The position numbers and the translations under genes are program-made. Shown piece by piece: positions 21,325 through 53,906 of a stretch of DNA of 64,000 nucleotides. The notes under the pieces are model-generated. The model was not told the origin of the DNA. It worked only from the letters and a program-made list of their open reading frames with translations, and did not search any database. Position 1 is the first letter of the stretch. Each line of letters starts with the position of its first letter. This stretch comes from Dyella jiangningensis (GTDB lineage: Bacteria > Pseudomonadota > Gammaproteobacteria > Xanthomonadales > Rhodanobacteraceae): NCBI RefSeq assembly GCF_003264855.1, contig NZ_NFZS01000002.1:62001-126000 (forward strand). The letters are read 5' to 3'.

Positions 21325-22242
21325 TCAGGCGGATCCGCGCTTGCGCGTGGACTTCTTCGCCGCCGTTTTCCTTGCGCTCTTGCGCGGCGCCTTGCGCCGG
21401 GGCGGTTTCTCCTCGGCCTCCTCGCCACCGCCCTTGGCAGGCGTACGGCGCTTGGACTTGAGGCTCTGCTGGAGCAGCGCCATGAAATCGACCACGTTGG
21501 TCGCGGCGTTTTCGGGTGCCGCCTCCTCTTCGGGCGTCACCACCACGCCCTTGGACTTCATGCGCTTCTCGATGACCTTGCGCAGGCGATCGCGGAATTC
21601 GTCGCGGAACGCATCGGGCTGCCATTCGTCGCTCATCGACTCGATGAGCTGCTGCGCCATGTCGATCTCCTTGGGCGAGACGCGGTAGTCGGCCGGCTTG
21701 CCTTCCGGTATCGAGTATTCGCCGGCGTCGATGAGCTCCTGCGGATAGCGCAGCAACATCAGCAACAGGCTGTCGCCCTTGGGCATCACGGCCGACAGGT
21801 ATTCACGCGTGCGTATCACCACGCGCGCGATGCCGATCTTTCCCGTTCGCTTGAGCGTCTCGCGCAGCAGTACATAGCCCTTTTCCGCCTTCTTACCGGG
21901 CACCAGGTAGTAGGGTTTCTCGAAGTATTCCGCGCCGATGGCCCCGGCATCGACGAAAGTCTCCACCTCCACCGCCTCCCTGCCCTCCGGCGACGCCGAC
22001 CGGATATCTTCCGGCTCCAGCACCACATAGCTTCCCTTCTTGTATTCGAAGGCTTTCACCACGTCCTTCCACGGGACCTCTTCGCCGGTTTCCGCATTGA
22101 CCCTCTCATAGCGCACGGGCGTATTGCTGCGGCTGTCCAGCATGCGGAAATGCAGGTCCACGCTCCGCTCGGCGGACATGAGCGAGACGGGCACATTGAG
22201 AAGACCGAACGACAAGGTTCCGGTCCATATGGGGCGGGCCAT
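21325..22242 (-). CDS. ku: Ku protein for non-homologous end joining
   Basis: A 305-residue bacterial Ku. It begins MARPIWTGTLSFGLLNVPV, the family signature, continues with the ring-forming core (EYFEKPYYLVPGKKAEKGYVLLRE, MPKGDSLLLMLLRYP) and ends in a long Lys/Arg-rich tail that should bind DNA and recruit LigD. Bacterial Ku homodimers thread onto broken DNA ends. No ligD gene lies in the window, so the partner is elsewhere. GGAG lies seven bases before the chosen ATG; an ATG two codons earlier is too close to it. Confidence 0.95.
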   Translation of the reverse strand: MARPIWTGTLSFGLLNVPVSLMSAERSVDLHFRMLDSRSNTPVRYERVNAETGEEVPWKDVVKAFEYKKGSYVVLEPEDIRSASPEGREAVEVETFVDAGAIGAEYFEKPYYLVPGKKAEKGYVLLRETLKRTGKIGIARVVIRTREYLSAVMPKGDSLLLMLLRYPQELIDAGEYSIPEGKPADYRVSPKEIDMAQQLIESMSDEWQPDAFRDEFRDRLRKVIEKRMKSKGVVVTPEEEAAPENAATNVVDFMALLQQSLKSKRRTPAKGGGEEAEEKPPRRKAPRKSARKTAAKKSTRKRGSA

Positions 22243-22429
22243 GACCATGCTCCATCGACTGGCAGATAAAGCATGGAACCGCTGCGCGCGTGAACCACCT
22301 GTGATACGGCGCGTGACGATTGGCGTTGGGTAAGCCCGCCGTGAACGAAGGCGCGCCGCTTACGCCCGCGTCACACGACGATAGCGATGGATGGCCAACC
22401 ATGAATGGCCCGCAACACGGAGCCGCATC

Positions 22430-22916: not shown

Positions 22917-23996
22917 TCAGGTTTTCCCGGCCGGACAAGGCGCGGTCGATCCCCGCACCACCAGGTCGGCCGACAGCACTCGCTTGCGTGGCGGCACCTC
23001 CGGGTCGTTGAGCAGTTCGATGAGCATGCTCATCGCCTCGCGGCCCAGTGCGTTCTTCGGCTGCGCGATGGTGGTCAGCGCCGGGGTCATGTAGCGGGAA
23101 AAGCGGATGTCGTCGAAGCCGACCACCGATATGTCCTGCGGCACGCGCAACCCGCGCGAGGCGAGCGCACGCATGGCGCCGATCGCCATCTCGTCGTTGG
23201 AACAGAACACCGCGGTGAACGACTGCCCTTGCGACAGCAGCAATTCGATCGCCCGTTCGCCCGCCTCGATGGAAAAATCCCCGACGGCCGTCAAGGCCGG
23301 ATTGCACGGCAGCCCTGCGGCATCGAGGGCCAGCCGGTAACCCTGCTCCCGATCGATGCAGATGGGGCTGGCCGGCGGCCCGGCGACGAAGGCGATGTCG
23401 CGATGCCCCAGCGTCACCAGGTAATCGACGGCCGCGCGCGCCGCGGTGACGTTGTCGACATAGACGCTGGAGATCTGCTGATCCTTCACGTATTCGCACG
23501 CGTTGACCACCGGCAGGCGCCCCTGCATGGGGATCGCGGGCACGCGATGGGACATGGTGATGATGCCGTCGGCCTGCCTGGCCGCGACCATGTCCGCATA
23601 GGCCTGCTCGCGCACCAGGCTGCTCTGCGTTTCGCCGAGCAATACCGAGTAGCCGTTTTCGTGGGCCACCTGCTCGATGCCACGGATGACCTGCGAGAAG
23701 AACGGGTTGGCGATGTCCGGCAGCAGGGCGACGATCAGGCGCGTGCGTGCCGTGCGCAGGTTGCGCGCCAATGCATTGGGCGTATAGCCCAGGCGTTTCA
23801 CCACCTCCTGGATATGCAGGCGCGTGGCTTCGCTGACGATCTCCGGCCGCTGCAGCGCACGCGACACCGTCGCCACCGACACGTTGGCGGCAGCGGCGAT
23901 TTCCTTGACCGTCCTTACGCGGCCTGGCGCCGCCGCGCCAGCCGCCGGATCGCCCTTGCCGACTTGTCGCTTGCGCCTGGACCCATCCGCACTCAC
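22917..23996 (-). CDS. LacI-family transcriptional regulator
   Basis: A 359-residue regulator. The helix-turn-helix TVKEIAAAANVSVATVSRALQ lies at residues 29-49, after an atypical basic, Ala-rich leader of 28 residues. A periplasmic-binding-protein-like sensor domain follows (LLPDIANPFFSQVIRGIEQVA... VVGFDDIRFSRYMTPALTTI). The best start is the GTG at 23996. It is divergent from the 24428-32970 operon, and two matching operators sit between them, so it very likely represses that operon until an inducing sugar or keto-sugar arrives, and probably itself. Confidence 0.92.
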   Translation of the reverse strand: MSADGSRRKRQVGKGDPAAGAAAPGRVRTVKEIAAAANVSVATVSRALQRPEIVSEATRLHIQEVVKRLGYTPNALARNLRTARTRLIVALLPDIANPFFSQVIRGIEQVAHENGYSVLLGETQSSLVREQAYADMVAARQADGIITMSHRVPAIPMQGRLPVVNACEYVKDQQISSVYVDNVTAARAAVDYLVTLGHRDIAFVAGPPASPICIDREQGYRLALDAAGLPCNPALTAVGDFSIEAGERAIELLLSQGQSFTAVFCSNDEMAIGAMRALASRGLRVPQDISVVGFDDIRFSRYMTPALTTIAQPKNALGREAMSMLIELLNDPEVPPRKRVLSADLVVRGSTAPCPAGKT

Positions 23997-24114
23997 GCGT
24001 TCCGCCTCCTGTTTTGCTGCTGTGCTCCGGACCGCCCCAGCGGCGTTCGGCCCGCCGGCCTGCGGAGAATCGCCCCGTCGCCGGCGTCACCCGACGCCGC
24101 CGTTGTGCAGTGCA

Positions 24115-24130
24115 ATGTAATGGATTACAT
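24115..24130. promoter_or_regulatory. LacI-type operator O1
   Basis: ATGTAATGGATTACAT: perfect 7-base inverted arms around GG. The shape and size fit LacI/GalR-family operators. It lies 119 bases upstream of the regulator's start. Confidence 0.75.
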
Positions 24131-24137
24131 GAAATCG

Positions 24138-24167
24138 TTGCACGTGCATTTGGACATCTGCTACATA
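24138..24167 (+). promoter_or_regulatory. Candidate sigma-70 promoter of the operon
   Basis: TTGCAC (24138-24143) and TACATA (24162-24167) with an 18-base spacer lie between the two operators, where repressor looping would block it. Based on consensus likeness only. Confidence 0.35.
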
Positions 24168-24250
24168 CTTTAGCCACTTTCCGTCGTTTGTCGCGTGCAG
24201 GGTTGTCGCGTCGAGCCAGGAAACATCGCAAGAACCCAGTTTTCATGCGG

Positions 24251-24266
24251 ATGTAATCGAATACAT
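24251..24266. promoter_or_regulatory. LacI-type operator O2
   Basis: ATGTAATCGAATACAT shares the left half of O1 exactly and has the central CG usual for the family; the right half has one mismatch to a perfect palindrome. Its centre is 136 bases from that of O1, close to 13 helical turns. Confidence 0.7.
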
Positions 24267-24427
24267 TTCTGACGGCAACGACGTTTCGGAGGGGAAATGG
24301 CAGGCCAGCCCGCATCGACCGGCGCCAGGGCGGCGCCCAGTGCATCCGCTTCATCCCTCCTTCGCGTCACCGTCGACCCTGCGTGCCGGAACCGCTGCAT
24401 GGGGCCATCGTCCCGGCCGGTGATCGC

Positions 24428-25621
24428 ATGAAAAAGCTCGGCATGGGCCTGGTCGGCCCCGGCTTCATCGCAGCCCATCATCTCGATGCCGTACGTCGCC
24501 TGGGCGACGTGGACATCGCCGGCATTGCCGGCTCCAGCCCCGAATCCGCGAAAAAACGCGCCCGTGAACTGGGCGTCGGCCATGCGTACGCGAATTACCG
24601 CGAACTGCTGGCCGATCCGGCCGTGCACGTGGTGCACAACACCACGCCCAATCACCTGCACAAAGAGGTTTCGCTCGCTGCCTTGCGCGCGGGCAAGCAC
24701 GTGATTTCGGACAAGCCGCTCGCCGGCAGCGCGCAGGAAAGCCGCGAACTGTTCGAGGCCGCACGCGATGCCGGCGTGGCGCACGTGGTCACCTTCAACT
24801 ATCGCGGCCATGCGCTGGTGCAGCAGGCCCGCGCGATGGTCGCCAAGGGCAAGCTCGGCGCGCCCGTGTTCGTGCATGGCCGCTACCTGCAGGACTGGCT
24901 GACCGACGAGAACACCTACTCGTGGCGCCTCGATCCCAAGCTGGGCGGCGCCAGTTCCGCGCTCGGCGATATCGGTTCGCACTGGTGCGATCTCGCCGAG
25001 CATGTCACCGGATCGCGCATTACGGCCGTGCTGGCCGATCTGCATACCGCGGTGCCCATGCGCCATGCGCCCGCCGAATCGACCAAGGCGTTCGCCACGT
25101 CGAAGTCGGCGAAACGGCGCGAGGTGAAGATCACCAGCGAAGACATCGCCAGCGTACTGCTGCGCTTCGACAACGGCGCGCGCGGCTGCGTGGTCGTCGG
25201 CCAGGTATTGCCCGGCCACAAGAACGACCTTCGCCTGGAAGTGAACGGCCGCCTCGCCTCCGTGGCGTGGCAGCAGGAAGCGCCCAACGAGCTTTGGATC
25301 GGTCATCACGCGCAGGGCAACACGCTGCAGGCGCGGGACCCGGCAACGCTCGATCCATCGGCACGCGGCTATGCACACCTGCCCGCCGGCCATCCGGAAG
25401 CCTGGAGCGATGCGTTCCGCAACCTGATCGCCGACGCGTACGCATGGATTCGCAGCGGTGGCGCAGCCAAGAAAAAGCCGGACGCATTGCCGACCTTCGC
25501 CGACGGCTATCGCAACAGCCTGGTCATCGACGCGATGCTCAAGAGCCACGCCGCGGGAGGCGTCTGGCAGAACGTGGAAGATCCATTCGGGCCGCAACGC
25601 AAAAAGGGGAAACGGGGATGA
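24428..25621 (+). CDS. Gfo/Idh/MocA family oxidoreductase
   Basis: A 397-residue NAD(P)-dependent sugar dehydrogenase. The Rossmann motif is GLVGPGFIAAHH, the family Lys-Pro lies in ISDKPLAGS, and the second-domain signature is GDIGSHWCDLAEH. No export signal, so it is cytoplasmic. Members of this family act on keto-sugars, including 3-keto-glycosides. It is the first gene of the LacI-controlled operon and probably reduces the imported keto-sugar or oxidises a sugar in the same route. The start places the first strand at residue 5; its stop overlaps the MFS gene as ATGA. Confidence 0.9.
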   Translation: MKKLGMGLVGPGFIAAHHLDAVRRLGDVDIAGIAGSSPESAKKRARELGVGHAYANYRELLADPAVHVVHNTTPNHLHKEVSLAALRAGKHVISDKPLAGSAQESRELFEAARDAGVAHVVTFNYRGHALVQQARAMVAKGKLGAPVFVHGRYLQDWLTDENTYSWRLDPKLGGASSALGDIGSHWCDLAEHVTGSRITAVLADLHTAVPMRHAPAESTKAFATSKSAKRREVKITSEDIASVLLRFDNGARGCVVVGQVLPGHKNDLRLEVNGRLASVAWQQEAPNELWIGHHAQGNTLQARDPATLDPSARGYAHLPAGHPEAWSDAFRNLIADAYAWIRSGGAAKKKPDALPTFADGYRNSLVIDAMLKSHAAGGVWQNVEDPFGPQRKKGKRG

Positions 25622-26835
25622 AGTGGCGCCTTCGGTTGATGATGCTGTTCGAATACGCGATCTGGGGCGCCTGGTACGTCACGGTCGGCACCTGGCTGGG
25701 CAAGACCCTGCACTTCAGCGGCCAGGAGATCGGCGCGGTAGCCGGCACCACGGCGATCGGCGCGATGATCTCGCCGCTGTTCGTCGGACTGATGGCAGAC
25801 CGCCTGTTCGACACGCGCCGCGTACTCGCCGCGCTGCATATCATCGGCGCCGTGCTGCTGGTGGTCGCCGCGAAGCAGAGTTCGTTCGCGCTGGTGTATG
25901 CCGCACTGCTGGCCTACAGCCTCTGCTACATGCCTACGCTGGCGCTCACCACCTCGCTTGCCATGCGACACATCACCGACCCGCGCGAGGAGTTCGGCGC
26001 GATCCGCGTGTTCGGCACCATCGGCTGGATCGTGGTGGGCCTGATCGTCGGCGCCTGGGGCGTGGAGGCAACCGCTTCGCCGCTGCATCTCGCGGCCGGT
26101 CTCTCCGTGGTGATGGCGGGCTATTGCTTCACCCTGCCCTCGACGCCGCCGCTTGCGCGCAACCAGCGCTTCGAACTGCGCCACGCATTGCCGCTGGAAT
26201 CGCTGCACCTGCTGCGCGACCGGTCGATGGCGGTGTTCGCCCTAGCGTCGTTCCTGATCTGCATTCCGTTGCAGTTCTATTACGCCTTCACCAACCTGTT
26301 CCTCAACGAGGTCGGCGTGGTCAACGCCGCCGGCAAGATGACCGGCGGTCAGATGTCGGAAATCCTGTGCATGCTGCTCATCCCCTGGTTCTTCCGCCGG
26401 CTGGGCGTGAAGTACATGCTCGCCGTCGGCATGCTGGCCTGGGTACTGCGCTACGCCATGTTCGCCTTCGGCGGCACCGGCGAGCTGATGTGGATGCTGT
26501 GGCTGGGCATCGTGCTGCACGGCATCTGCTTCGACTTCTTCTTCGTCGTCGGCCAGATCTACATCGATCGCGAAGCGCCGCCCGCGCTGCGTGCCGCCAC
26601 GCAAGGCCTGATCACCTTCCTCACCTACGGCCTGGGCATGTTCGTCGGCTCGTGGCTGTCCGGCGTGGTCGTGGACACCTACGCCAAGACCGGCGCCGAA
26701 GGCGTCGCCGCGCATGACTGGCACGCGATTTGGCTGATCGCCGGTGGCTGCGCCGCCTTCGTGCTCGTGCTGTTCGTGCTGATGTTCAAGGATCGACGGG
26801 AAGCGTCGGCCGCCCCCGTCACCACCACCGCCTGA
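25618..26835 (+). CDS. MFS permease of the nucleoside/sugar:H+ symporter group
   Basis: A 405-residue membrane protein with about 12 helices, beginning MKWRLRLMMLFEYAIWGAWYVTVGTWLG, which is typical of the NupG-like nucleoside:H+ symporter family. In sugar operons of Bacteroidetes and Xanthomonadales, such permeases sit beside keto-sugar enzymes and probably carry those sugars, not nucleosides. Translation is coupled to the upstream dehydrogenase by a four-base overlap. It should bring the product made by the exported GMC enzyme into the cytoplasm. Confidence 0.87.
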   Translation: MKWRLRLMMLFEYAIWGAWYVTVGTWLGKTLHFSGQEIGAVAGTTAIGAMISPLFVGLMADRLFDTRRVLAALHIIGAVLLVVAAKQSSFALVYAALLAYSLCYMPTLALTTSLAMRHITDPREEFGAIRVFGTIGWIVVGLIVGAWGVEATASPLHLAAGLSVVMAGYCFTLPSTPPLARNQRFELRHALPLESLHLLRDRSMAVFALASFLICIPLQFYYAFTNLFLNEVGVVNAAGKMTGGQMSEILCMLLIPWFFRRLGVKYMLAVGMLAWVLRYAMFAFGGTGELMWMLWLGIVLHGICFDFFFVVGQIYIDREAPPALRAATQGLITFLTYGLGMFVGSWLSGVVVDTYAKTGAEGVAAHDWHAIWLIAGGCAAFVLVLFVLMFKDRREASAAPVTTTA

Positions 26836-26872
26836 CTCCCCCACCCACCTGGCTCTCCAGGAGAATGTTTTC

Positions 26873-27748
26873 ATGATGAATCGCAGGCAGTTTCTCGCTC
26901 GATCCGCCATGTTCGGCGGCGCGGCGTGGCTCGCCGCCAGCGCGCCCGGCAAGCTTCTCGCCGCTGCGGCGCAGGGCAAGCCGCTCGGCATCCAGCTCTA
27001 CATGGTGCTGAAGGCCTACCAGGACGATCCGATGGGCACGCTCAAGACGCTCAAGGCCATCGGCTACAGCGAAATCGAAGCCATCGTCACCTCGACCGCG
27101 AAGACGCTGCGCGACCAGTTGAACGAAGCCGGCCTCGGCTGCCCCAGCCTGCACTTCGACAGCCTGGGCATCGAGCCCGGCATCGAAGCCGCGCACACGC
27201 TGGGCACGCAGTATTTCGTCAGCAGCATGCTGCCCTCGTTCATGGAGAAGATGAGCGGCGGCACCAAGGCCACCTATTCGCGCGACGACGCCAAGCGCAC
27301 CGCCGACTTCGCCAACCAGATCGGCGAGAAGGCCAGGCAGGCGGGCCTGCAGTACGCGTACCACAACCACCATCTCGAATTCACCGAGGTCGGCCAGGGG
27401 CAGACGTTCTACGACGTGCTGCTCAAGGAAACCGATCCGAAGCTGGTGAAGTTCGAACTCGATTGCGGCTGGGTACATGCAGGCGGCAAGAATCCGGCCG
27501 ACATCTTCAAGGCGAACCCGGGCCGCATTCCGCTGATGCACGCCAAGGATTTCCTACCCTCTTCCAAGCCCGACGAATATCCCGGCGCGGAACTGGGGCG
27601 CGGCACGGTCGACTACAAACCGATCATGGCCGCCGCGGACAAGGCTGGACTGAAGCATTGCTTCGTCGAGCAGGAAGGTCCGTTCTCGCGCATGAGCCAG
27701 CTCGACGCCGCGCGCGTCGACTTCGCCTACCTGCGTCCGCTGCGCTGA
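26873..27748 (+). CDS. Tat-exported TIM-barrel sugar isomerase/epimerase
   Basis: A 291-residue protein with a Tat signal (NRRQFLARSAMFGGAAWLAAS) and an AP-endonuclease-2-type TIM barrel. Likely metal ligands sit in AYHNHHLEF, KFELDCGWV and LMHAKDF. Family members are xylose isomerase-like epimerases or isomerases, and some act on or cleave 3-keto-sugars. Its export agrees with the Tat-bearing GMC complex that follows. AGGAG lies upstream of two adjacent ATG codons; the first is used. Confidence 0.88.
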   Translation: MMNRRQFLARSAMFGGAAWLAASAPGKLLAAAAQGKPLGIQLYMVLKAYQDDPMGTLKTLKAIGYSEIEAIVTSTAKTLRDQLNEAGLGCPSLHFDSLGIEPGIEAAHTLGTQYFVSSMLPSFMEKMSGGTKATYSRDDAKRTADFANQIGEKARQAGLQYAYHNHHLEFTEVGQGQTFYDVLLKETDPKLVKFELDCGWVHAGGKNPADIFKANPGRIPLMHAKDFLPSSKPDEYPGAELGRGTVDYKPIMAAADKAGLKHCFVEQEGPFSRMSQLDAARVDFAYLRPLR

Positions 27749-27791
27749 CCCAGCGCTTACACATTCGACCGATCGCTTGTTTCAAGGGGCC

Positions 27792-29486
27792 ATGATGGAC
27801 AAGAACACGTACGACGCCATTGTTGTCGGTACCGGCGTCAGCGGTGGCTGGGCAGCCAAGGAGCTCACGGAAAAGGGACTCAAGACCCTCGTGCTCGACC
27901 GTGGCCGCATGGTCAAGCACGGCGAATACCCCACGGCGACGAAGGCGCCCTGGGAACTGCCGTATGCGAACGAGCCCACGCAGGAAGACGTGCGCAGGCA
28001 TCCGATCCACACGCGTCCGTCGTTCTACGGCATCACGCAGGCCACAAAGCACTGGTTCGTCGATGACCTCGACAACCCCTACGTCGAAACCAAGCCGTTC
28101 GACTGGTTCCGCGGTTATCACGTCGGCGGCCGCTCGCTGATGTGGGGTCGCCAGAGCTATCGCTTCAGCGACATCGACTTCGAGGCGAACGGCAAGGAAG
28201 GCGTCGGCGTCGACTGGCCGATCCGCTACGCCGACATCGCGCCCTGGTACGACTACGTCGAGAACTTCATCGGCGTGAGCGGCGCCACCGATCACCTCGC
28301 GCAGTTGCCGGACGGCCAGTTCCTGCCTCCGATGGAACTCAATTGCGTGGAGAAGGAGTTCCGCGGCCGCCTCGCCGACAAGTTCAACCGCAAGCTGATC
28401 ATCGGTCGCACGGCCAACCTTTCCGGCCCGCTCAAGCACGATCAGAGCCCACAGCGCGCCACCTGCCAGTACCGCAACCAGTGCATGCGCGGCTGCCCGT
28501 TCGGCGCCTACTTCAGCAGCAACTCCTCGACCCTGCCGTCGGCCGAACGCACCGGCAACATGACGATCGTGCCCAACGCCATCGTCTACGAGATGATCTA
28601 CGACAACGCCAAGGGCAAGGCGACCGGCGTGCGCGTGCTCGACGCCGAAACCGGCCACCAGACCGAATACTTCGCCCGCGTGATCTTCCTGTGCGCCTCG
28701 ACCTTCGGCACCACGCATATCCTGCTGAACTCGACCTCGACCCGCTTCCCCAACGGCTTCGGCAACGACAGCGGCGAGCTGGGCCACAACGTGATGGATC
28801 ACCTGTTCGGCACTGGCGCCATGGCCAGCGTGGACGGACACCTCGACCGCTACTACAGCGGCCGCCGTCCCAATGGCTTCTATATTCCGCGCTACCGCAA
28901 CATCGGCTCGGACAAGCGCCCTTACCTGCGCGGCTTCGGCTACCAGGGCAGCGCGAGCCGTCGCAACTGGTCGCGTTTCGTGGACGAGAACCTGATCGGC
29001 GACGAGCTCAAGCGCGCCGCGGAAGAGCCCGGCCCGTGGACGCTGTCGATGGGCGGCTTCGGCGAGATGCTGCCCGCGCACCAGAACTTCGTATCGCTGG
29101 ACCGCAACCGCAAGGACAAGTACGGCCTGCCGGTGCTCAACTTCGACGTCACGCACCGCGAGAACGAGCGCCTGATGGCCAAGGAGATCGTCAGCGACGC
29201 GGTCGAGATGATGACCGCCGCCGGCTACAAGGACGTGAAGCCCTACCACGTCGATGCCAACGTCGGCGCCGCGATCCACGAAATGGGCACCGCACGCATG
29301 GGTCGCGATCCCAAGACCTCGGTGCTCAACTCGTGGAACCAGATGCACGCATCGAAGAACGTGTTCATCACCGACGGCTCGTGCATGGCCTCGTCCGCGT
29401 GCCAGAACCCGTCGTTGACCTACATGGCCTTGACGGCGCGTGCCGCCAGCCATGCGGTGGAAGAACTCAAGCGCGGAAACATCTGA
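27792..29486 (+). CDS. GMC oxidoreductase, glucoside 3-dehydrogenase-like catalytic subunit
   Basis: A 564-residue FAD enzyme. The dinucleotide site is VVGTGVSGGWAAKEL (residues 11-25), a Cys cluster CQYRNQCMRGC holds Cys225, Cys231 and Cys235, which recalls the [3Fe-4S] site of bacterial FAD glucose dehydrogenase, and the active-site His region is IHEMGTARMG (about 492-501). It has no signal peptide; in this family it is carried across the membrane by the Tat-bearing small subunit encoded next. Related enzymes oxidise the C3 hydroxyl of glycosides. The start has AAGGGG upstream. Confidence 0.9.
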   Translation: MMDKNTYDAIVVGTGVSGGWAAKELTEKGLKTLVLDRGRMVKHGEYPTATKAPWELPYANEPTQEDVRRHPIHTRPSFYGITQATKHWFVDDLDNPYVETKPFDWFRGYHVGGRSLMWGRQSYRFSDIDFEANGKEGVGVDWPIRYADIAPWYDYVENFIGVSGATDHLAQLPDGQFLPPMELNCVEKEFRGRLADKFNRKLIIGRTANLSGPLKHDQSPQRATCQYRNQCMRGCPFGAYFSSNSSTLPSAERTGNMTIVPNAIVYEMIYDNAKGKATGVRVLDAETGHQTEYFARVIFLCASTFGTTHILLNSTSTRFPNGFGNDSGELGHNVMDHLFGTGAMASVDGHLDRYYSGRRPNGFYIPRYRNIGSDKRPYLRGFGYQGSASRRNWSRFVDENLIGDELKRAAEEPGPWTLSMGGFGEMLPAHQNFVSLDRNRKDKYGLPVLNFDVTHRENERLMAKEIVSDAVEMMTAAGYKDVKPYHVDANVGAAIHEMGTARMGRDPKTSVLNSWNQMHASKNVFITDGSCMASSACQNPSLTYMALTARAASHAVEELKRGNI

Positions 29487-29496
29487 GGATATCGCC

Positions 29497-30087
29497 ATGA
29501 ATCGTCGCGAATGGTTGAAGTGTGTTTCCGCGCTTGCCGTCGGCACGGTGGCCGCGCCCACGTTGCTGGCCGCCTTCGATGCCTACGCCGCCGCGCAAGT
29601 GCCCGGCGCCACCCCGCAGTTCTTTACGCGTCCGCAGCTGGACCTGATCTCCTCGGTGGTCGACATCATCATTCCCCGCAGCGACACGCCCGGCGCGGTC
29701 GACGTGGGCGTGCCCCGCTTCATCGACGAGATGTTCGCCAACGTCTACGCCAAGGCCGACCAGGAGCGTTACATGAGCGCATTGGCCGCGTTCGACCAGG
29801 CGGGCGGCAAGCCCTTCCTCCAGCTGAGCGAGGCGCAACGCAAGGCGCTGGTGATGAAGCTGCATGCCGAGGCCCTGGCGGATCCGAAAGACACCGCCAC
29901 GGCCCTGGCGGCCTCTTCGGTGCTGATGAACAAGAAGCTCGCCATGATGGGTTTCTTCCTGTCACAACCCGGCTGCACCGAAGTGCTGCAGTATTCGGCG
30001 GTGCCCGGGGCATACCACGCCGACATACCGCTGGCGAAGGCCGGCAACGGCAAGGCCTGGGCCGTCGAAACGGTACTGATGTTCTGA
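29497..30087 (+). CDS. Gluconate 2-dehydrogenase subunit 3-like small subunit (Tat)
   Basis: A 196-residue protein with a Tat leader (MNRREWLKCVSALAVGTVAAP) and the subunit-3 fold seen in membrane-bound sugar dehydrogenases (FFTRPQLDLISSVVDIIIPRSDTPGA). It is the partner of the GMC protein encoded ten bases upstream and should carry it to the periplasm. A cytochrome c subunit, the usual third partner, is not encoded in this operon. Confidence 0.9.
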   Translation: MNRREWLKCVSALAVGTVAAPTLLAAFDAYAAAQVPGATPQFFTRPQLDLISSVVDIIIPRSDTPGAVDVGVPRFIDEMFANVYAKADQERYMSALAAFDQAGGKPFLQLSEAQRKALVMKLHAEALADPKDTATALAASSVLMNKKLAMMGFFLSQPGCTEVLQYSAVPGAYHADIPLAKAGNGKAWAVETVLMF

Positions 30088-30122
30088 CCCATGGCTTACC
30101 CGCACGAACCAGGTGATCACGC

Positions 30123-31178
30123 ATGAAGACACTCAAGGGACCGGGCATTTTCCTCGCCCAGTACGCGGGAGACGCGGCGCCCTTCAACACGCTGCCCGAT
30201 ATCGCGCGATGGGCGGCGTCGCTGGGCTTCGTCGGCTTGCAGATTCCCACCAACGACCGGCGCCTGTTCGATCTCGAACAGGCCGCGGCGAGCAAGACGT
30301 ATTGCGACGACATCGCGGGCATGCTGGCCGAGCACGGATTGTCGGTGACCGAGCTTTCCACGCACCTGCAAGGCCAGCTGGTGGCTTCGCATCCCGCCTA
30401 TGACCGCCTGTTCGATGGCTTCGCGCCCGAGCATCTGCGTGGCCATGGCAAGGAACGCCAGGCGTGGGCCGTGCAGCAGCTCAAGCTCGCGGCCACGGCA
30501 AGCCGGCATTTCGGCCTCTCCGCGCACGCCACCTTTTCGGGCGCGCTGGCGTGGCACCTGTTCTATCCGTGGCCGCAACGTCCAGCCGGCCTGATCGAAG
30601 AAGCCTTCGCCGAGCTCGGCAGGCGCTGGCGCCCGATCCTCGATGCGTTCGGCGAAGCGGGCGTGGACGTGTGCTACGAACTGCATCCCGGCGAGGACCT
30701 GCACGATGGCGCCACCTTCGAGCGCTTCCTCGATGCCGTGGATCACCACCCGCGCGCCAACATCCTTTACGACCCCAGCCACATGGTGTTGCAGCAGCTG
30801 GACTACCTCGCCTTCATCGATCTCTATCACGAGCGCATCCGCGCCTTCCACGTGAAGGACGCCGAGTTCCGTCCCAATGGACGCGCTGGCGTCTATGGCG
30901 GCTACCAGAGCTGGATCGATCGCCCCGGTCGTTTCCGCTCGCTGGGCGACGGGCAGATCGACTTCATCGCCATCTTCAGCAAGATGGCGCAATACGACTA
31001 CCCGGGCTGGGCCGTGCTCGAATGGGAGTGCTGCCTGAAGGACCCCATCCAGGGCGCCACCGAAGGCGCGCGCTTCATTCGCGACCACATCATCAAGGTC
31101 ACGGATCGCGCGTTCGACGACTTCGCGGCCACTGGCGCCGACCAGGCGTTCAATCGCCAGATCCTTGGCCTCGACTGA
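30123..31178 (+). CDS. Sugar phosphate isomerase/epimerase (TIM barrel)
   Basis: A 351-residue cytoplasmic TIM-barrel protein. The metal-binding set of this fold is visible: Glu in VCYELHPGED, Asp and His in ILYDPSHMVL, His in AFHVKDAEF and Glu in AVLEWECCL. It resembles IolE/IolI-type enzymes and a subgroup found in keto-sugar operons. Its likely work is isomerising or dehydrating the keto-sugar delivered by the MFS permease. AGGTGA precedes the ATG. Confidence 0.88.
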   Translation: MKTLKGPGIFLAQYAGDAAPFNTLPDIARWAASLGFVGLQIPTNDRRLFDLEQAAASKTYCDDIAGMLAEHGLSVTELSTHLQGQLVASHPAYDRLFDGFAPEHLRGHGKERQAWAVQQLKLAATASRHFGLSAHATFSGALAWHLFYPWPQRPAGLIEEAFAELGRRWRPILDAFGEAGVDVCYELHPGEDLHDGATFERFLDAVDHHPRANILYDPSHMVLQQLDYLAFIDLYHERIRAFHVKDAEFRPNGRAGVYGGYQSWIDRPGRFRSLGDGQIDFIAIFSKMAQYDYPGWAVLEWECCLKDPIQGATEGARFIRDHIIKVTDRAFDDFAATGADQAFNRQILGLD

Positions 31179-31250
31179 ACATTGCGCGCCATGCGACATC
31201 CCACGCCGCTTCATCCATCCACTCGTCGATGCCCGAGGAACGCCTAGGCC

Positions 31251-32153
<903 letters not shown>

Positions 32154-32172
32154 CCAGTCATCGGGGACATCC

Positions 32173-32970
32173 ATGAAACGACCATTCGCCGCCGCGCTGA
32201 CGTTGTGCGCCCTCGCAACCTCCATGGCATGGGCGCAGTCCACCGCCCCAGCCGCGACTGCCGAGCCCACCGATCCCAAGGCCACCGAGCAGTGGGAGCC
32301 CGTTCCGAAGATCGTCACGCCGGGTGCGCAGGACAGCGCGCCACCGTCGGATGCCATCGCGCTGTTCGACGGCCACGACCTCAGCCAATGGGAAGCCTCC
32401 AAGGACCACTCGCCCGCGCACTGGAACGTGCACGACGGCGTGATGACGGTCGACAAGACCACCGGCAACATCCAGACCAAGCGGCACTTCAGGAGCTACC
32501 AGCTGCATCTGGAATGGCGCGTCCCCAAGGACATCACCGGCGAAGGCCAGGCGCGCGGCAACAGCGGCGTGTTCCTCGCATCGACCGGACCGGGCGATGA
32601 AGGTTACGAAGTCCAGATCCTGGATTCATGGAAGAACACGACCTACGTCAACGGCCAGGCCGCCAGCATCTACAAGCAGGCGCCGCCGCTGGCCAACGCG
32701 ATGCGCCCGCCGGGCGAATGGCAGACCTACGACGTGGTCTGGACGGCGCCGGTATTCGCCGCGGATGGAACGCTGAAGTCGCCGGCCTACGTCACGCTGT
32801 TCCACAACGGCGTGCTGGTGCAGAACCACACCCAGCTCGCCGGCGAAACGTTCTACATCGGCAAGCCCAGGTACAAGCCGTACGACGCGGCGCCGATCAA
32901 GCTGCAGGCGCATGGCGATCACTCGCAGCCCATCAGCTTCCGCAATATCTGGGTGCGCCCGCTGGACTGA
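32173..32970 (+). CDS. DUF1080 protein, candidate 3-keto-glycoside hydrolase
   Basis: A 265-residue secreted protein: signal peptide (RPFAAALTLCALATSMAWA) and a DUF1080 jelly-roll domain (ALFDGHDLSQWEAS, YQLHLEWRVPKD, RGNSGVFLAS, GYEVQILDSW). DUF1080 members were recently assigned as 3-keto-disaccharide hydrolases or lyases; this role fits the operon, since the GMC complex would create the keto group and this protein cleave the bond. It is the last gene of the operon. Confidence 0.9.
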   Translation: MKRPFAAALTLCALATSMAWAQSTAPAATAEPTDPKATEQWEPVPKIVTPGAQDSAPPSDAIALFDGHDLSQWEASKDHSPAHWNVHDGVMTVDKTTGNIQTKRHFRSYQLHLEWRVPKDITGEGQARGNSGVFLASTGPGDEGYEVQILDSWKNTTYVNGQAASIYKQAPPLANAMRPPGEWQTYDVVWTAPVFAADGTLKSPAYVTLFHNGVLVQNHTQLAGETFYIGKPRYKPYDAAPIKLQAHGDHSQPISFRNIWVRPLD

Positions 32971-32987
32971 GCGCCTCGATGCCGCCG

Positions 32988-33404
32988 TTACCTCGGCGGC
33001 ATCGTTTCGAATGCCGGCACGGACGGATGTTGCATGTCCCAGGCCGGACGCCGGATGGCATACGTCACCGCCTGCGGCTGGTAACGCTTCGTGTCGTCGA
33101 GGCTGGCCGCATGGATGGTGAACAGGTCCGGCATCGCGGCGAAGGTGAGATACACCGGTGAGCCGCAACGCGGGCAGAACGCATGCGTCTTGACGTTGCC
33201 GCTGTCGGCGATGATGTCCCATGACGACGCCTGTCCTTCCACGCGAACCGCTTTGCGATCGGGAAAGGTGAGATAGGAGCCATGCCCGGTACCGCTGCGT
33301 TGCTGGCAGTCGCGGCAATGGCATTCGTTCATGAACAACGGTTCCGCAGCGATGGTGTAGCGCACGGCGCCGCAAGCGCAGCCGCCGGTATAGGCGTCAC
33401 TCAT
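32988..33404 (-). CDS. GFA family zinc protein
   Basis: A 138-residue protein with the cysteine pattern of the GFA/CENP-V fold: GGCACGAVRY, NECHCRDCQQRSG and AFCPRCGSPVY. These bind zinc. The family name comes from a glutathione-dependent formaldehyde-activating enzyme, but most members have unknown substrates. AGGAG lies before the ATG. It is convergent with the keto-glycoside operon and probably unrelated to it. Confidence 0.9.
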   Translation of the reverse strand: MSDAYTGGCACGAVRYTIAAEPLFMNECHCRDCQQRSGTGHGSYLTFPDRKAVRVEGQASSWDIIADSGNVKTHAFCPRCGSPVYLTFAAMPDLFTIHAASLDDTKRYQPQAVTYAIRRPAWDMQHPSVPAFETMPPR

Positions 33405-34341: not shown

Positions 34342-36786
34342 TCAGGCCGCGTGTTGTGGCCCGCTGCCTGCGGGAGCCCGCCAGGTCGCGTCGCGCAACA
34401 GAAAGTGCGACAGGGCCGGGATCAGCACCAGGGCGCCCACCATGTTCCACAGGAACATGAAGGTGAGCAGGATGCCCATGTCGCCCTGGAACTTGATCGG
34501 CGAAAACGCCCAGGTCACCACGCCGGCGGCGAGCGTGACGCCCACCAGCGCCACCACCTTGCCGGTGAACTGCACGGCATGGCGATACGCCTGCACCAGC
34601 GGCACGCCGGCGCGCTGCTGCGCGAGCTGGATCGACAGCAGGTACAGCGCATAGTCCACGCCGATGCCCACGCCCAACGCAATGACCGGCAGCGTCGCCA
34701 CCTTCACGCCGATGCCCAGCCACACCATCAGCGCTTCGCACAGAATGGAGGTCAGCATCAGCGGAACCACCGCCACCACCACCGCGCGCCACGAGCGGAA
34801 CGTCACGAAGCAAAGCAGGATCACCGCGCCGTACACGTAGAACAGCATGGTGTGGTCGGCTTCGCGCACCACGATGTTGGTCGCCGCATCGATGCCCGCA
34901 CTGCCGGCGGCCAGCAGATACTGGCGATCCGTGGCGCCGTGCGCGGCCGCGAACGAAGCTGCCGCCTTGACGACGCGATCGAGCGTTTCCGCGCGATGAT
35001 CGGCGAGATAGGCGATCACCGGCATGATCGAACAGGCGTTGTTGAACAGGTCCGGGTTGTTCACCGAGGCCTGTTGCGCGCCGTAATTGAGCACGTCCTG
35101 GTTGCGCGCGATGGTGAGCCACTTCGGGCTCCCTTCATACGAACCGGCCGTGATCTGGCGCACCGCATCACCCAGGAAGGTGGTGGCCTGCACGCCCGGC
35201 ACCTGGCGCAACGCCCAGGCCAGCCGGTCGGCTTCGACCAGGGTCGGGTATTTCAGGCAGCCTTCGGGCGGTGTCTTCACGATGACGGCGAACACATCAC
35301 TGGACAGCGAGTAGTTGCCGGTGATGTAGGCGTTGTCGCGGTTGTAGCGCGAATTGGCGCGCAACTCGGGCGCGCCCGGTTCCAGGTCGCCGATCTTCAG
35401 GTGCGTGCTGACCATGAAACCCGCGACCGCAAGCACCGCGGATGCGCCGAGCACGGCCACCGCCCAGCGACGCGAGGTGAAGCGATCCAGCCATTGCCAC
35501 GCCGAGCGGCCGCCCTTCCCTTCGAGCTGACTACGCTCGGCATGCAGGCTTCGTTCCGCCGCGGCGGGGTCGACGCCCGTGAACGACAGCAGCACCGGCA
35601 ACAGCAGCAGGTTGGTGAAGATCAGCACGGCGACGCCGATGCTCGCGGTGAGCGCGAGGTCCTTGATCACCGGGATATCGATCACCATCAGCACGCCAAA
35701 GCCCACGGCGTCCGCCAGCAATGCGGTGACGCCGGCCAGGAACAGGCGACGGAACGTGTAGCGCGCCGCGACCAGCCGATGCGTGCCGCGGCCGATGTCC
35801 TGCATGATGCCGTTCATCTTCTGCGCGCCATGCGAGACACCGATCGCGAAGATCAGGAACGGCACGAGGATCGAGAACGGATCGAGCGAAAAACCCAGCA
35901 CCGCAACCAGCCCGAGCTGCCAGACCACGGCCACGATGGAACACAGTATGACCAGCGCGGTGCTGCGCAGGCAGCGCGTGTAGCCAAAGATCACCCCGAT
36001 GGCGATCAAGGCGGCGATGCCGAAGAAGCCCATCACCTTGACCAGGCCGTCGATCAGGTCGCCGACCAGCTTGGCAAAGCCGATCACGTGGAGATGCACC
36101 TTCACGCCCGGCGTGGCCTCGTAACGCGCACGAATGTCATCCAGCGACCGCGACAACGCGCGATAGTCGATGGGCTTGCCGGTTTCCGGATTCCTGTCGA
36201 GCAGCGGCACGAAGATCATGCTCGACTTGAAATCGTTGCCGACAAAGCGGCCGACGATGCCCGAGCGCGCGATGTTGAGCTTCAGCTGCGCCGTGCCTTG
36301 CGGCGAACCATCGTAGCCGTCCGGCATGACCGGGCCACCGCGGAAACCCTCTTCCGTCACCTCGGTCCAGCGCACCGAGGGCGTCCACAACGACTTGACC
36401 CAGGCGCGATCGACGCCGGGCGTGAGGAACAGGTCGTCGTTGATCTTCTTCAGGACGTCCTGGTACTTCGGGTCGAAGATGCTGCCGTCCTGGTTTTCCA
36501 CCACCACGCGCAACGAGTTGCCCAGGCCGCGCAGTTCGCCCGCGTTGTCGAGGTAGTTGCGGATGTAGGGATGGTGGCTCGGGATCATCTTCTCGAAGCT
36601 GGCGTTGAAGCTCAGCCGCGTCACCGCCAGCCCCCCGAGGATCGCCGTGGCGATCACGCAGGCGATGACCATGATGAGGCGGTGATTGAACACCAGCCGC
36701 TCCAGCAGGTTGCCGGAGCGCGTGTCGAAAGCCTCGACGGATCGCACCACGGGCATGCGATCGATGGACTCGGACGAAACATTCAT
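34342..36786 (-). CDS. RND/MMPL-family hydrophobe transporter
   Basis: An 814-residue inner-membrane protein in two repeats, each one helix, a large periplasmic loop and about five helices. Landmarks are FNHRLIMVIACVIATAILGGLAVTRLSF at the first helix, VSHGAQKMNGIMQDIG after helix 5, and IALGVGIGVDYALYLLS in the second half with a conserved Asp. Members of this group accompany YCF48, DUF1329 and DUF1302 proteins in loci for hydrophobic compounds and are thought to move lipids or hydrophobic substrates. GAGGAG is eight bases before the ATG. It lies 21 bases after the YCF48-like gene. Confidence 0.88.
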   Translation of the reverse strand: MNVSSESIDRMPVVRSVEAFDTRSGNLLERLVFNHRLIMVIACVIATAILGGLAVTRLSFNASFEKMIPSHHPYIRNYLDNAGELRGLGNSLRVVVENQDGSIFDPKYQDVLKKINDDLFLTPGVDRAWVKSLWTPSVRWTEVTEEGFRGGPVMPDGYDGSPQGTAQLKLNIARSGIVGRFVGNDFKSSMIFVPLLDRNPETGKPIDYRALSRSLDDIRARYEATPGVKVHLHVIGFAKLVGDLIDGLVKVMGFFGIAALIAIGVIFGYTRCLRSTALVILCSIVAVVWQLGLVAVLGFSLDPFSILVPFLIFAIGVSHGAQKMNGIMQDIGRGTHRLVAARYTFRRLFLAGVTALLADAVGFGVLMVIDIPVIKDLALTASIGVAVLIFTNLLLLPVLLSFTGVDPAAAERSLHAERSQLEGKGGRSAWQWLDRFTSRRWAVAVLGASAVLAVAGFMVSTHLKIGDLEPGAPELRANSRYNRDNAYITGNYSLSSDVFAVIVKTPPEGCLKYPTLVEADRLAWALRQVPGVQATTFLGDAVRQITAGSYEGSPKWLTIARNQDVLNYGAQQASVNNPDLFNNACSIMPVIAYLADHRAETLDRVVKAAASFAAAHGATDRQYLLAAGSAGIDAATNIVVREADHTMLFYVYGAVILLCFVTFRSWRAVVVAVVPLMLTSILCEALMVWLGIGVKVATLPVIALGVGIGVDYALYLLSIQLAQQRAGVPLVQAYRHAVQFTGKVVALVGVTLAAGVVTWAFSPIKFQGDMGILLTFMFLWNMVGALVLIPALSHFLLRDATWRAPAGSGPQHAA

Positions 36787-36807
36787 GCGTTGTCTCCTCG
36801 CGCCCGC

Positions 36808-37875
36808 TCAGTGCAGCGGCCTGGCGTTCACGCCAAGCGCACCGGCGGTCACGATCACGTCGCCGGCGACGGCCACCGCCGATGCCGGTGCCGGCTTGGC
36901 CGGACGATGGGTAACGAAGTGCTCGCCGCCATCGCGGCTGACCAGCACGGTGCCGGCCTGGCTCACCAGCGCGAGGCCGTGTGCGCCAAAGCGGGTGCCA
37001 CCGGTGAGGCCTTCCTGCACGCCGGTGTCGATCGCGCTCCAGTGCGCACCAGCATCGATGCTGCGATAGGCGTTGCCGCGCAGCCCGTACACGACGACGG
37101 ATGCGCCGTCGCCGACGACGCCGAAATAGGTGCCTTTGTAAGGCGTATCCACCACGCGGAAGCGACCGGCATCGCGATCGAGCTTCAGCACCAGGCCCTG
37201 CTCGCCGGTGATATAGACGTCCGCACCGATACCGCGTACCGCGTAAAGATGCAGGCGCTGCGGGTTCTCGGTGCGGTCGAACCACGACGTCCAGGTCTGG
37301 CCGCCGTCGGTGGTTTCAAAGATCAGGTTGAAGGCGCCGACGATGTAGCCGTGGCGCGCATCGGCAAACCACACGTCGAGGAAGGGATTCTCGACGCCCT
37401 GCGAGGCGATGCGGCCTGCTTCGTCGACCAGCTTGCCCGCTTCGTCCTGGTCGCCCGGTTCGCCCTTGCCCGCGCGCGCGCGAAGCTGTTCGAGCATCAG
37501 CGCACCGGCACGACGTCCATCCAGCTGCAGCGACCAGGTCGCACCGCCGTCGGCCGTATGCAACACGACGCCATCGTGCCCCACGGTCCAACCTTGCTGC
37601 GGCGTGGGAAAACTCACCGCCACCAGATCGGAGGACACCGGCACCTTGGCCTGCTGCCAGCTGGCGCCGTTGTCGTCGGAAGTGACGATGTGCCCGCGTT
37701 GCCCCACCGCGACCATTCGCTTGCCCGCCACCGCCAGTCCGTTGAGCAGCGTTTTCGACGCCAACGCACTCACGCCGGCGGACGTATCCAACACATCGGC
37801 AAAACCCGCGACAGCGATGGCCGGCAGCGCGAAGGCGAGCGCGACCAGCGCGCGACGGAGGAATGGCGTGTACAT
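36808..37875 (-). CDS. YCF48-related BNR/beta-propeller protein
   Basis: A 355-residue exported protein: signal peptide (RRALVALAFALPAIAVAGF) followed by Asp-box-like repeats (TSDDNGASW, TADGGATWSL, TTDGGQTWTSW, SIDAGAHWSAID, SRDGGEHF) giving a six- or seven-bladed propeller. Homology to the photosystem II factor YCF48 is only of fold; in bacteria these sit beside RND transporters and probably act as their periplasmic partner. It is directly upstream of the RND gene and downstream of the DUF1329 gene. Confidence 0.88.
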   Translation of the reverse strand: MYTPFLRRALVALAFALPAIAVAGFADVLDTSAGVSALASKTLLNGLAVAGKRMVAVGQRGHIVTSDDNGASWQQAKVPVSSDLVAVSFPTPQQGWTVGHDGVVLHTADGGATWSLQLDGRRAGALMLEQLRARAGKGEPGDQDEAGKLVDEAGRIASQGVENPFLDVWFADARHGYIVGAFNLIFETTDGGQTWTSWFDRTENPQRLHLYAVRGIGADVYITGEQGLVLKLDRDAGRFRVVDTPYKGTYFGVVGDGASVVVYGLRGNAYRSIDAGAHWSAIDTGVQEGLTGGTRFGAHGLALVSQAGTVLVSRDGGEHFVTHRPAKPAPASAVAVAGDVIVTAGALGVNARPLH

Positions 37876-38114
37876 CGGGTGCCCCAACAATCCAAGGCCG
37901 GTTTCGCCCTGCCCCGTCGCCGACACACCGGCATACCGGCGATCACGAACCATGCAGAACCGACGAAACAGCCAACCAACAAGGTGCGTGGCAGATGGCG
38001 GTGGGGCGCTACCCATGCGGGTGACGGCGTTTGGCGCACCCTCCCCCGAGAGGCGGCCTTCGTCACCGCGGTCATGTGGCATTCGCCTCACCACCGCCAT
38101 TGCCATGCGAGTGC

Positions 38115-38146
38115 GTCGCGGAGCGACCGGGCGGCCGCTCCGCGAC
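38115..38146 (-). terminator. Hairpin after DUF1329 gene
   Basis: GTCGCGGAGCG pairs perfectly with CGCTCCGCGAC over a 10-base loop, 28 bases beyond the DUF1329 stop on the minus strand. It could end or attenuate transcription before the YCF48-like gene, which begins about 240 bases further on. Confidence 0.55.
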
Positions 38147-38174
38147 AGGTCTTACGATCGCCCTGCGAGGGCCA

Positions 38175-39524: not shown

Positions 39525-39866
39525 GCGCATGCTCCTCACGATGTGATTCGAGTTTCTGGAGGTGGCTTTGCATCGCCACCCCATGGCTGAGCACAGGCCT
39601 CGTCACGTCGCGACCGGCATCACTCCACCGGGACAGCGGTGCGTGTCTTCGCACCGCCGCGCTCACCACGCTGCCTCACTCTTGTGCCGACAACCGTGCC
39701 CCGGCTTTGCGGCCGGGACACGCGAAAGCGGTCGATACCCATTGTTCGGAGCGGCGGGAGCCATACCCCCCCCAAAACGTCGGGGGAGGGGGAAAGGAAT
39801 CCAGGAGGGGTGGCGATTCGGCCGTTGCATTCACGCCCAAAGCGGCCAAGACGGACGCCGGAAGAC
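39525..39866. other. Gap between MalT-type regulator and DUF1329 gene
   Basis: A 342-base gap. It contains a G/C-run hairpin (C8 at 39766-39773 and a run of G from 39782) after the regulator's stop, a possible terminator, and the promoter region of the DUF1329 gene. I see no gene in it. Confidence 0.5.
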
Positions 39867-52003: not shown

Positions 52004-52188
52004 CGGAGACCGTCCGGCATCGTCGCGTCCGCGTGGCGATGCCGGATGACTCCCTGCCGACAACAACCAGTGGCATCTTCACACAGTCACCCACTGAAGC
52101 GTCGCCCTCCTACCAAGGGACGACACGCCACCGGGGCCTCGCTGGCCCCATTCACGCACCTCCCCTGCCCTTTATGCGGAACACCACG

Positions 52189-53887: not shown

Positions 53888-53906
53888 AATGAGAATGACT
53901 CGCATC
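53888..53906. promoter_or_regulatory. Fur-type box over the FTR1 start codon
   Basis: AATGAGAATGACTCGCATC matches a perfect AATGAGAAT-G-ATTCTCATT palindrome at 16 of 19 positions, and is overlapped on its left by the inverted repeat CTCATT-T-AATGAG. It covers the start codon of the iron permease gene. The gene product supports Fur control. Confidence 0.6.

What the first reader, a model, noticed from the sequence alone, without database searches (positions are those of the whole stretch)
24428..32970. Probable periplasmic 3-keto-glycoside operon
Eight co-directional genes combine a Gfo/Idh/MocA dehydrogenase, a NupG-like permease, three TIM-barrel isomerases (two with Tat signals), a GMC flavoprotein with its Tat-bearing small subunit and a DUF1080 protein. 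Established knowledge: GMC plus subunit 3 complexes oxidise C3 of glycosides, and DUF1080 proteins have been linked to cleavage of 3-keto-glycosides. Inference: this operon oxidises a glycoside outside the cytoplasm, cleaves or isomerises it there, and imports the keto-sugar for reduction. The two exported isomerases are unusual and may define a new step.
Basis: partly seen in the sequence, partly recalled or inferred. Interest (0 to 1): 0.72.

Follow-up and report, generated by a model that had tools for sequence, protein, structure and literature searches.

The report
Three-keto-glycoside operon with extra exported isomerase
This is a bacterial gene set for breaking sugar conjugates by oxidising and eliminating instead of hydrolysing them, a route already described in other bacteria, but it carries one extra exported enzyme of unknown job that recurs in the same gene set in unrelated bacteria.

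Summary
The eight co-directional genes are real (24428-32970), with a divergent LacI gene and two operator-like palindromes. They fit the known non-hydrolytic 3-keto-glycoside route: GMC plus subunit 3 oxidises; exported TIM barrel g3 keeps six of six active-site residues of the eliminase AtOGE; g6 is cytoplasmic and matches the solved 2-hydroxy-3-keto-glucal hydratase 8ro4 (E 3e-180), so it is no isomerase; DUF1080 is a second exported cleaving enzyme; a NupG-type permease imports; a Gfo/Idh/MocA enzyme reduces. Seven of the eight genes match the described Caulobacter lactose cluster. The new part is g7 (TIM3), a Tat-exported TIM barrel with the residues of epimerases/isomerases, not of the lyases. 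In 299 genomes of the order it occurs in 51, each also with the GMC, hydratase and DUF1080 genes. Among 26 linked rows, its export follows subunit 3: 21 of 21 with it, 0 of 5 without. On a tree the linked, Tat-bearing state needs at least five changes. I propose that TIM3 epimerises 3-keto-glycosides, or shifts their ketone, before cleavage. That chemistry is untested, and 73 of 99 relatives examined are not linked to the pathway genes.

The parts
22917..23996 (-). LacI-family regulator, divergent from the operon
   Evidence: Pfam LacI and Peripla_BP_3. Matched by tblastn in 11 of 15 related loci searched: L042, L059, L060, L061 (81-90% identity) and L043, L044, L055, L080, L081, L083, L190 (43-46%); no match in L046, L047, L086, L156
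24115..24130 (.). Operator-like palindrome 1, ATGTAATGGATTACAT
   Evidence: 0 expected in shuffles; present in 4 of 4 close relatives scanned; the only exact match in the genome. Binding is inferred
24251..24266 (.). Operator-like palindrome 2, ATGTAATCGAATACAT
   Evidence: One mismatch to the pattern; present in the same 4 of 4 relatives
24428..25621 (+). g1, Gfo/Idh/MocA oxidoreductase; inferred 3-keto-glucose reductase
   Evidence: Pfam; best NCBIfam model levoglucosan dehydrogenase, far below cut-off (193 of 650 bits); 29-42% identity to its counterparts in five related loci
25618..26835 (+). g2, NupG-type (Nuc_H_symport) MFS permease; inferred importer of the keto or unsaturated sugar
   Evidence: Pfam 383 bits
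26873..27748 (+). g3 (TIM1), Tat-bearing TIM barrel; inferred 3-keto-O-glycoside beta-eliminase
   Evidence: Matches 8tcd, 8tcs, 8bvk, 8tct; 47 of 123 identical to the printed stretch of 8bvk and six of six AtOGE site residues kept: H164, H166, E195, D197, H223, E266
27792..29486 (+). g4, GMC flavoprotein; inferred glycoside 3-dehydrogenase catalytic subunit
   Evidence: Pfam; solved relatives FDH and GDH large subunits; 58% identity to the GMC of the Caulobacter-type cluster L190
29497..30087 (+). g5, gluconate 2-dehydrogenase subunit 3-like small subunit with Tat motif; inferred carrier of g4 through the Tat route
   Evidence: Pfam 92 bits
30123..31178 (+). g6 (HYD), cytoplasmic TIM barrel, 2-hydroxy-3-keto-glucal hydratase
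   Evidence: 8ro4 over residues 1-350, E 3e-180; no signal sequence
31251..32153 (+). g7 (TIM3), Tat-bearing TIM barrel of the epimerase/isomerase type; the novel part
32173..32970 (+). g8, DUF1080 (3keto-disac_hyd) protein with signal-like N-terminus; inferred second cleaving enzyme
   Evidence: Pfam 153 bits; 4qhz E 4e-82; the only match of this family in the genome

Best explanation
A LacI-controlled operon for the oxidation-elimination-hydration-reduction breakdown of glycosides, split across the inner membrane. Outside: GMC plus subunit 3 oxidises C3 of the glycosyl unit; g7 (TIM3) rearranges the 3-keto-glycoside by proton transfer next to the ketone (C4 or C2 epimerisation, or a 3-keto/2-keto shift) so that more sugars fit the next enzymes; g3 (TIM1) cleaves by beta-elimination to aglycone plus 2-hydroxy-3-keto-glucal, and g8 (DUF1080) cleaves further linkages. 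g2 imports the unsaturated and/or 3-keto sugar. Inside: g6 hydrates the enone to 3-keto-glucose and g1 reduces it to a hexose. Shown here: families, residues, co-occurrence and export pattern. Inferred: every reaction in this organism, the transported compound and the TIM3 chemistry. About 0.85 for the pathway, about 0.45 for TIM3 being a 3-keto-glycoside epimerase or ketone-shifting isomerase.
For: Pathway: g6 matches 8ro4 over its whole length (E 3e-180); g3 keeps six of six AtOGE site residues, as do seven of seven further TIM1 proteins tested (residues from PMC10628242 section 8); GMC, subunit 3 and DUF1080 families; seven of the eight genes stand together in 7 of 7 fetched Caulobacter-type stretches, which fit the published lactose cluster (PMC9007349 section 10). 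TIM3: 51 of 51 TIM3 genomes in the order sample also have HYD, GMC and DUF1080; linkage recurs in separate clades of the TIM3 tree; TIM3 is Tat-type in 21 of 21 linked rows with subunit 3 and in 0 of 5 without; metal set E180, D216, H242, E279 with H219 and R249, His at the third ligand as in YcjR, and no His two residues after E180; fold nearest to the Hyi/OtnI/YcjR group.
Against: No reaction was tested. By score TIM3 is nearer to Hyi-like 3ngf than to YcjR, and YcjR cannot be placed on the tree (branch about 10). The wider TIM3 family is common without the pathway: 73 of 99 rows are not linked, and of 39 unlinked genomes searched only 12 have HYD (some are incomplete MAGs). The co-occurrence counts are not independent of kinship, and the five rows without export are all Caulobacteraceae. 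The Caulobacter-type stretches, which should handle lactose, have no TIM3, so it is not essential. No electron-carrying cytochrome gene is in the operon.
Confidence: 0.8

Rival explanations
1. TIM3 is a general Hyi-like sugar isomerase that acts on a free sugar or a small hydroxy-keto acid outside the cell and has no step of its own in 3-keto-glycoside breakdown; it travels with the operon because both are used on the same food.
For: Best solved match by profile and by fold is Hyi-like 3ngf; NCBIfam hydroxypyruvate isomerase is its best model (109 bits); 73 of 99 relatives are unlinked.
Against: The hydroxypyruvate isomerase score is far under the cut-off (109 of 353 bits). It has His, not the Gln of E. 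coli Hyi and OtnI, at the third metal position. Linkage recurs, and export follows subunit 3.
Confidence: 0.3
2. TIM3 is a second eliminase, for example for alpha-glycosides, beside the beta-specific TIM1.
For: AtOGE prefers beta-glucosides (PMC10628242 discussion), so a partner would make sense; same compartment as TIM1 in the rows examined.
Against: It lacks the catalytic His two residues after the first metal ligand that TIM1 (HNH) has and that g6 (ELH) also shows; TIM3 has E-L-L-N. DUF1080 can fill that role.
Confidence: 0.15
3. DUF1080 (g8) is the main cleaving enzyme and g3 does something else.
For: In Caulobacter the DUF1080 gene CCNA_01705 is needed on lactose (PMC9007349).
Against: g3 keeps six of six AtOGE site residues; the same paper reports that the two sugar epimerase genes of that cluster are also important on lactose, and by my gene match these are TIM1 and HYD.
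Confidence: 0.1
4. The GMC enzyme oxidises a sugar at another position (a fructose or glucose dehydrogenase) and the rest is an unrelated catabolic set.
For: Its solved relatives are fructose and glucose dehydrogenases; C3 preference cannot be read from sequence.
Against: The genes beside it belong to families that act on 3-keto-sugars; 58% identity to the Caulobacter-type cluster GMC, one relative of which is named glucoside 3-dehydrogenase catalytic subunit by its source (P0177).
Confidence: 0.05

Closest known systems
Caulobacter crescentus lactose cluster, lacABC with DUF1080 (PMC9007349, section 10 read)
   Same: Transporter, two TIM barrels, sugar reductase, GMC, subunit 3 and DUF1080; in 7 of 7 stretches that I take for this cluster the same seven genes stand together, and a related LacI gene in L190
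   Different: A cytochrome c gene (LacB by position; that LacB is a cytochrome is recalled) stands in L190 and not here; TIM3 is in the window and in none of those seven stretches; MFS, TIM1, Gfo and subunit 3 are only 31-35% identical to L190
Agrobacterium tumefaciens GlycDH-AtOGE-AtHYD-Gfo operon (PMC10628242, abstract and sections 7, 8, 14 read)
   Same: Oxidation, elimination, hydration, reduction; hydratase (8ro4) and eliminase (8bvk) relatives are here
   Different: Eliminase exported here; DUF1080, NupG-type permease and TIM3 added
Bacteroides BT2156-BT2160 broad-specificity route (Nature 2024 paper not held, recalled; passages on it in PMC11501099)
   Same: A DUF1080 protein, a TIM-barrel lyase and Gfo-type dehydrogenases (recalled; NCBIfam names BT_2158 and BT_2159 as glycoside and disaccharide 3-dehydrogenases)
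   Different: Oxidation there by Gfo-type enzymes (recalled), here by a GMC complex; g8 is only distantly similar to the DUF1080 structures 8rr2 and 8tda (26 bits). PMC11501099 reports no growth defect of BT2157 or BT2158 deletions on raffinose-family sugars
E. coli YcjR, 3-dehydro-D-guloside 4-epimerase (annotation; passages in PMC11543891)
   Different: Cytoplasmic, other operon, low identity (18% in the fold alignment)
Hyi / OtnI isomerases
   Same: Closest by fold and profile score
   Different: Gln in place of His at the third metal position in the E. coli proteins; below NCBIfam cut-offs

Membership tests
Non-hydrolytic 3-keto-glycoside pathway | Flavoprotein C3 dehydrogenase (GMC plus subunit 3) | tested here: inconclusive
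   Families present, 58% identity to the Caulobacter-type GMC; C3 regiochemistry not testable from sequence
Non-hydrolytic 3-keto-glycoside pathway | OGE-type eliminase with its metal and catalytic residues | tested here: met
   Six of six residues in g3
Non-hydrolytic 3-keto-glycoside pathway | 2-hydroxy-3-keto-glucal hydratase | tested here: met
   8ro4, residues 1-350, E 3e-180
Non-hydrolytic 3-keto-glycoside pathway | 3-keto-glucose reductase of the Gfo/Idh/MocA family | tested here: inconclusive
   Family met; specificity open, best NCBIfam model far below cut-off
Caulobacter LacABC lactose dehydrogenase cluster | Cytochrome c subunit gene in the cluster | tested here: not met
   None among the eight genes; the own-genome search with the L190 cytochrome found none, without a positive control
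DUF1080 (PF06439) | Pfam gathering score | tested here: met
   153.2 against 26.8 bits
OGE/CGE lyase, for TIM3 | Catalytic His two residues after the first metal ligand | tested here: not met
   E180-L-L-N in TIM3, against HNH in g3
Hydroxypyruvate isomerase (TIGR03234), for TIM3 | NCBIfam cut-off | tested here: not met
   109.2 of 353.45 bits
YcjR-like 3-keto-glycoside 4-epimerase, for TIM3 | Metal set E/D/H/E with His and Arg in the site (roles recalled from this fold family) | tested here: met
   Same letters at all six positions in YcjR; invariant in the 12 rows of A2
YcjR-like 3-keto-glycoside 4-epimerase, for TIM3 | Groups with YcjR in sequence | tested here: inconclusive
   YcjR branch too long to place; 41.6 bits against 71.8 for 3ngf
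YcjR-like 3-keto-glycoside 4-epimerase, for TIM3 | C4 epimerisation of 3-keto-glycosides | not testable with these tools
   Needs the purified protein and NMR

The most novel reading that the evidence does not exclude
TIM3 is an additional, exported step of the 3-keto-glycoside route: an epimerase/isomerase acting on the intact 3-keto-glycoside, either recoding galactosides and other sugars into 3-keto-glucosides before cleavage or rescuing 2-keto by-products of spontaneous isomerisation. It has become linked to the pathway in several separate clades of its family, and it follows the dehydrogenase between periplasm and cytoplasm. A corollary is that the permease imports the reactive unsaturated sugar 2-hydroxy-3-keto-glucal, because the eliminase is outside and its hydratase inside.
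Probability: 0.4. Interest if true: 0.65.

Novelty: new variant of a known kind. Interest (0 to 1): 0.45.

Why it matters
The oxidation-elimination route for glycosides was recognised only recently, and what it does with sugars other than glucose is open: PMC9007349 calls the fate of the 3-keto-galactose from lactose unknown. An epimerase-type enzyme placed where the sugar is oxidised is a direct candidate for that gap and can be tested with one purified protein. The placing of eliminase outside and hydratase inside also gives a testable claim about which sugar the permease carries.

Tried and rejected
Rejected: g6 as an isomerase (8ro4); GMC as choline dehydrogenase (50 of 605 bits); TIM3 as an OGE-type lyase and as ordinary Hyi.

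Led nowhere: the own-genome palindrome search gave this locus (no and one mismatch) plus four two-mismatch places, of which three are the same sequence within 45 bases of contig ends and one is a different palindrome on C1; I did not annotate them, so no further regulon member was found. No sigma-70-like promoter in 24000-33200 and no terminator-like site after g8. Family scans of nine neighbours of unlinked TIM3 genes in six loci showed no common theme (seven of the nine also). Of seven DUF1080 loci fetched from the genus of G602 (L183-L189; nine of 30 genomes had a match), none has the operon and one (L188) has TIM1 and MFS. The TIM3 model has mean pLDDT 78.6 but residues 1-40 are below 50. 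Fold families not listed are not excluded. A paper search for at least three of five terms on TIM barrels, GMC, subunit 3, hydroxypyruvate isomerase and twin-arginine found no paper. The Nature 2024 paper (doi 10.1038/s41586-024-07574-y) and the Angewandte paper behind the hydratase (doi 10.1002/anie.202410681) are not held; what I say of the former, and that 8tcd, 8tcs and 8tct come from that work, is recalled. That 8bvk is AtOGE is inferred from its residue numbers.

Cut-offs and dropped rows: presence in the order sample means HYD over 500, TIM3 over 200 and DUF1080 over 200 bits and GMC at E<=1e-100; G199 counts for GMC on a partial 400-bit match. A TIM3 row is 'linked' if its stretch also holds GMC and one of HYD, TIM1 or subunit 3; short contigs can make a row look unlinked. 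The 80 named loci are the best 80 of at least 592 matches. From the tree, L089 (same record as L086) and a row with X letters were dropped: 97 of 99 rows plus the window and three E. coli references. The Caulobacter-type stretches are 7 of the 12 genomes with a DUF1080 match among 41; in most of them the stretch ends soon after subunit 3, and I did not search those genomes for TIM3 elsewhere.
Full report
What is there. Eight genes run head to tail from 24428 to 32970 with gaps of 72 bases or less. A divergent LacI gene lies at 22917-23996. Between it and g1 lie two palindromes, ATGTAATGGATTACAT (24115) and ATGTAATCGAATACAT (24251); 100 shuffles of the window gave none, and both stand upstream of g1 in 4 of 4 close relatives scanned. 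The window is C2:62001-126000 of a 4.76-Mb genome. Named proteins among the 120 best matches to g7 come from Dyella, Luteibacter, Frateuria and Rhodanobacter.

What the proteins are. g6 matches the solved 2-hydroxy-3-keto-glucal hydratase 8ro4 over its whole length (E 3e-180) and shows no signal. g3 matches the TIM barrels 8tcd, 8tcs, 8tct and 8bvk. The 8bvk numbering fits the AtOGE residues named in PMC10628242 (section 8), and g3 keeps six of six: H132, H134, E161, D163, H189 and E233 of AtOGE; so do seven of seven further TIM1 proteins of such operons that I tested. g4 and g5 are a GMC flavoprotein and a small subunit with a Tat motif; the nearest solved relatives of g4 are fructose and glucose dehydrogenases. 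g8 is a DUF1080 protein, the only match of that family in the genome. g1 and g2 are a Gfo/Idh/MocA oxidoreductase and a NupG-type permease.

What it is a case of. PMC10628242 (sections 7 and 14 read) describes a four-enzyme route in Agrobacterium: C3 oxidation, beta-elimination, hydration, reduction. [quoted passage not shown] In the genus of G549, 12 of 41 genomes have a DUF1080 match; I fetched 7 of those 12 and all 7 hold DUF1080, MFS, a Tat-type TIM1, Gfo, HYD, GMC and subunit 3. The GMC of one of them (L190) has Caulobacter as its best named match, and a cytochrome c gene lies between its HYD and GMC genes. This fits the published description; the two 'sugar epimerases' there would be TIM1 and HYD. 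So seven of the eight genes here are a known kind of cluster, and an exported TIM1 is not new in itself. HYD, DUF1080 and GMC are 75, 65 and 58% identical to L190; the other four shared proteins only 31-35%.

The eighth gene. TIM3 (g7) is in none of those seven stretches. In the sample of 299 genomes of the order it occurs in 51, and all 51 also have HYD, DUF1080 and GMC; HYD occurs without TIM3 in 5, DUF1080 in 6 and GMC in 11. These genomes are kin, so the counts are not independent. In the phylum sample 17 of 398 genomes have a TIM3 match at E<=1e-30. I fetched wide stretches for 11 of the 17: five hold all eight genes (L080-L084), two a five-gene version GMC, TIM1, HYD, Gfo, TIM3 (L085, L086), one only GMC and subunit 3 beside TIM3 (L079), and three none of the others (L078 and the weaker matches L087, L088). 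In L043, L044 and L055 the eight genes form two convergent halves, with TIM3 beside GMC, subunit 3 and DUF1080. Among the 80 named loci, Hymenobacter rigui (L156) holds all eight and Caulobacter sp. SLTY (L090) and a Brevundimonas MAG (L091) the five-gene version.

Linkage and compartment. On a tree of 101 rows the state 'linked and Tat-bearing' needs five changes, also when only well-supported branches count. The window's TIM3 lies in a supported set of 8 rows (100/99), the L043-type TIM3 in another of 11 rows (100/98). Gains and losses cannot be told apart. Of 26 linked rows, all 21 with subunit 3 have an RR-type N-terminus on TIM3 (19 by script; L116 and L136 by eye), and none of the 5 without subunit 3 has one (4 distinct sequences, all Caulobacteraceae; TIM1 of L085 and L086 also shows no signal). 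TIM3 thus sits where GMC sits, which suggests that it acts on the oxidised glycoside or its first product.

Limits. No reaction was tested. Export was judged by motif and hydrophobicity. Electron transfer from GMC is unexplained: the operon has no cytochrome gene, and the genome search with the L190 cytochrome had no positive control. In the held papers I met no report of TIM3 in this pathway; two central papers are not held.

Noticed in passing
window 21325-22248 (-): Ku (bacterial end-joining) gene, Pfam Ku 143 bits.
   Followed up: no
window 34342-39584 (-) and 50174-53817 (+): MMPL transporter, BNR/YCF48-like, DUF1329 and, further on, DUF1302 and an AMP-binding enzyme.
   Followed up: no
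window 53889-55820 (+): Iron permease FTR1 fused to cytochrome c domains.
   Followed up: no
L042, L043, L080, L083, L156, L190 against the window: The cluster keeps HYD, GMC and DUF1080 well, while the eliminase (TIM1) and reductase (Gfo) slots are filled by distant subfamilies: TIM1 30-35% identical to the window's in five loci, although the L043 TIM1 is 86 of 128 identical to AtOGE's printed stretch.
   Followed up: partly
L103-L168 (Acidobacteriota, Verrucomicrobiota, Planctomycetota, Bacteroidota): A large family of Tat-bearing 'hydroxypyruvate isomerase'-like TIM barrels away from the pathway genes: 40 of 73 unlinked rows are flagged Tat by my script.
   Followed up: partly
L085, L086, L090, L091: An all-cytoplasmic-looking GMC, TIM1, HYD, Gfo, TIM3 operon in Caulobacteraceae, without subunit 3 or DUF1080 in the stretch.
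   Followed up: partly
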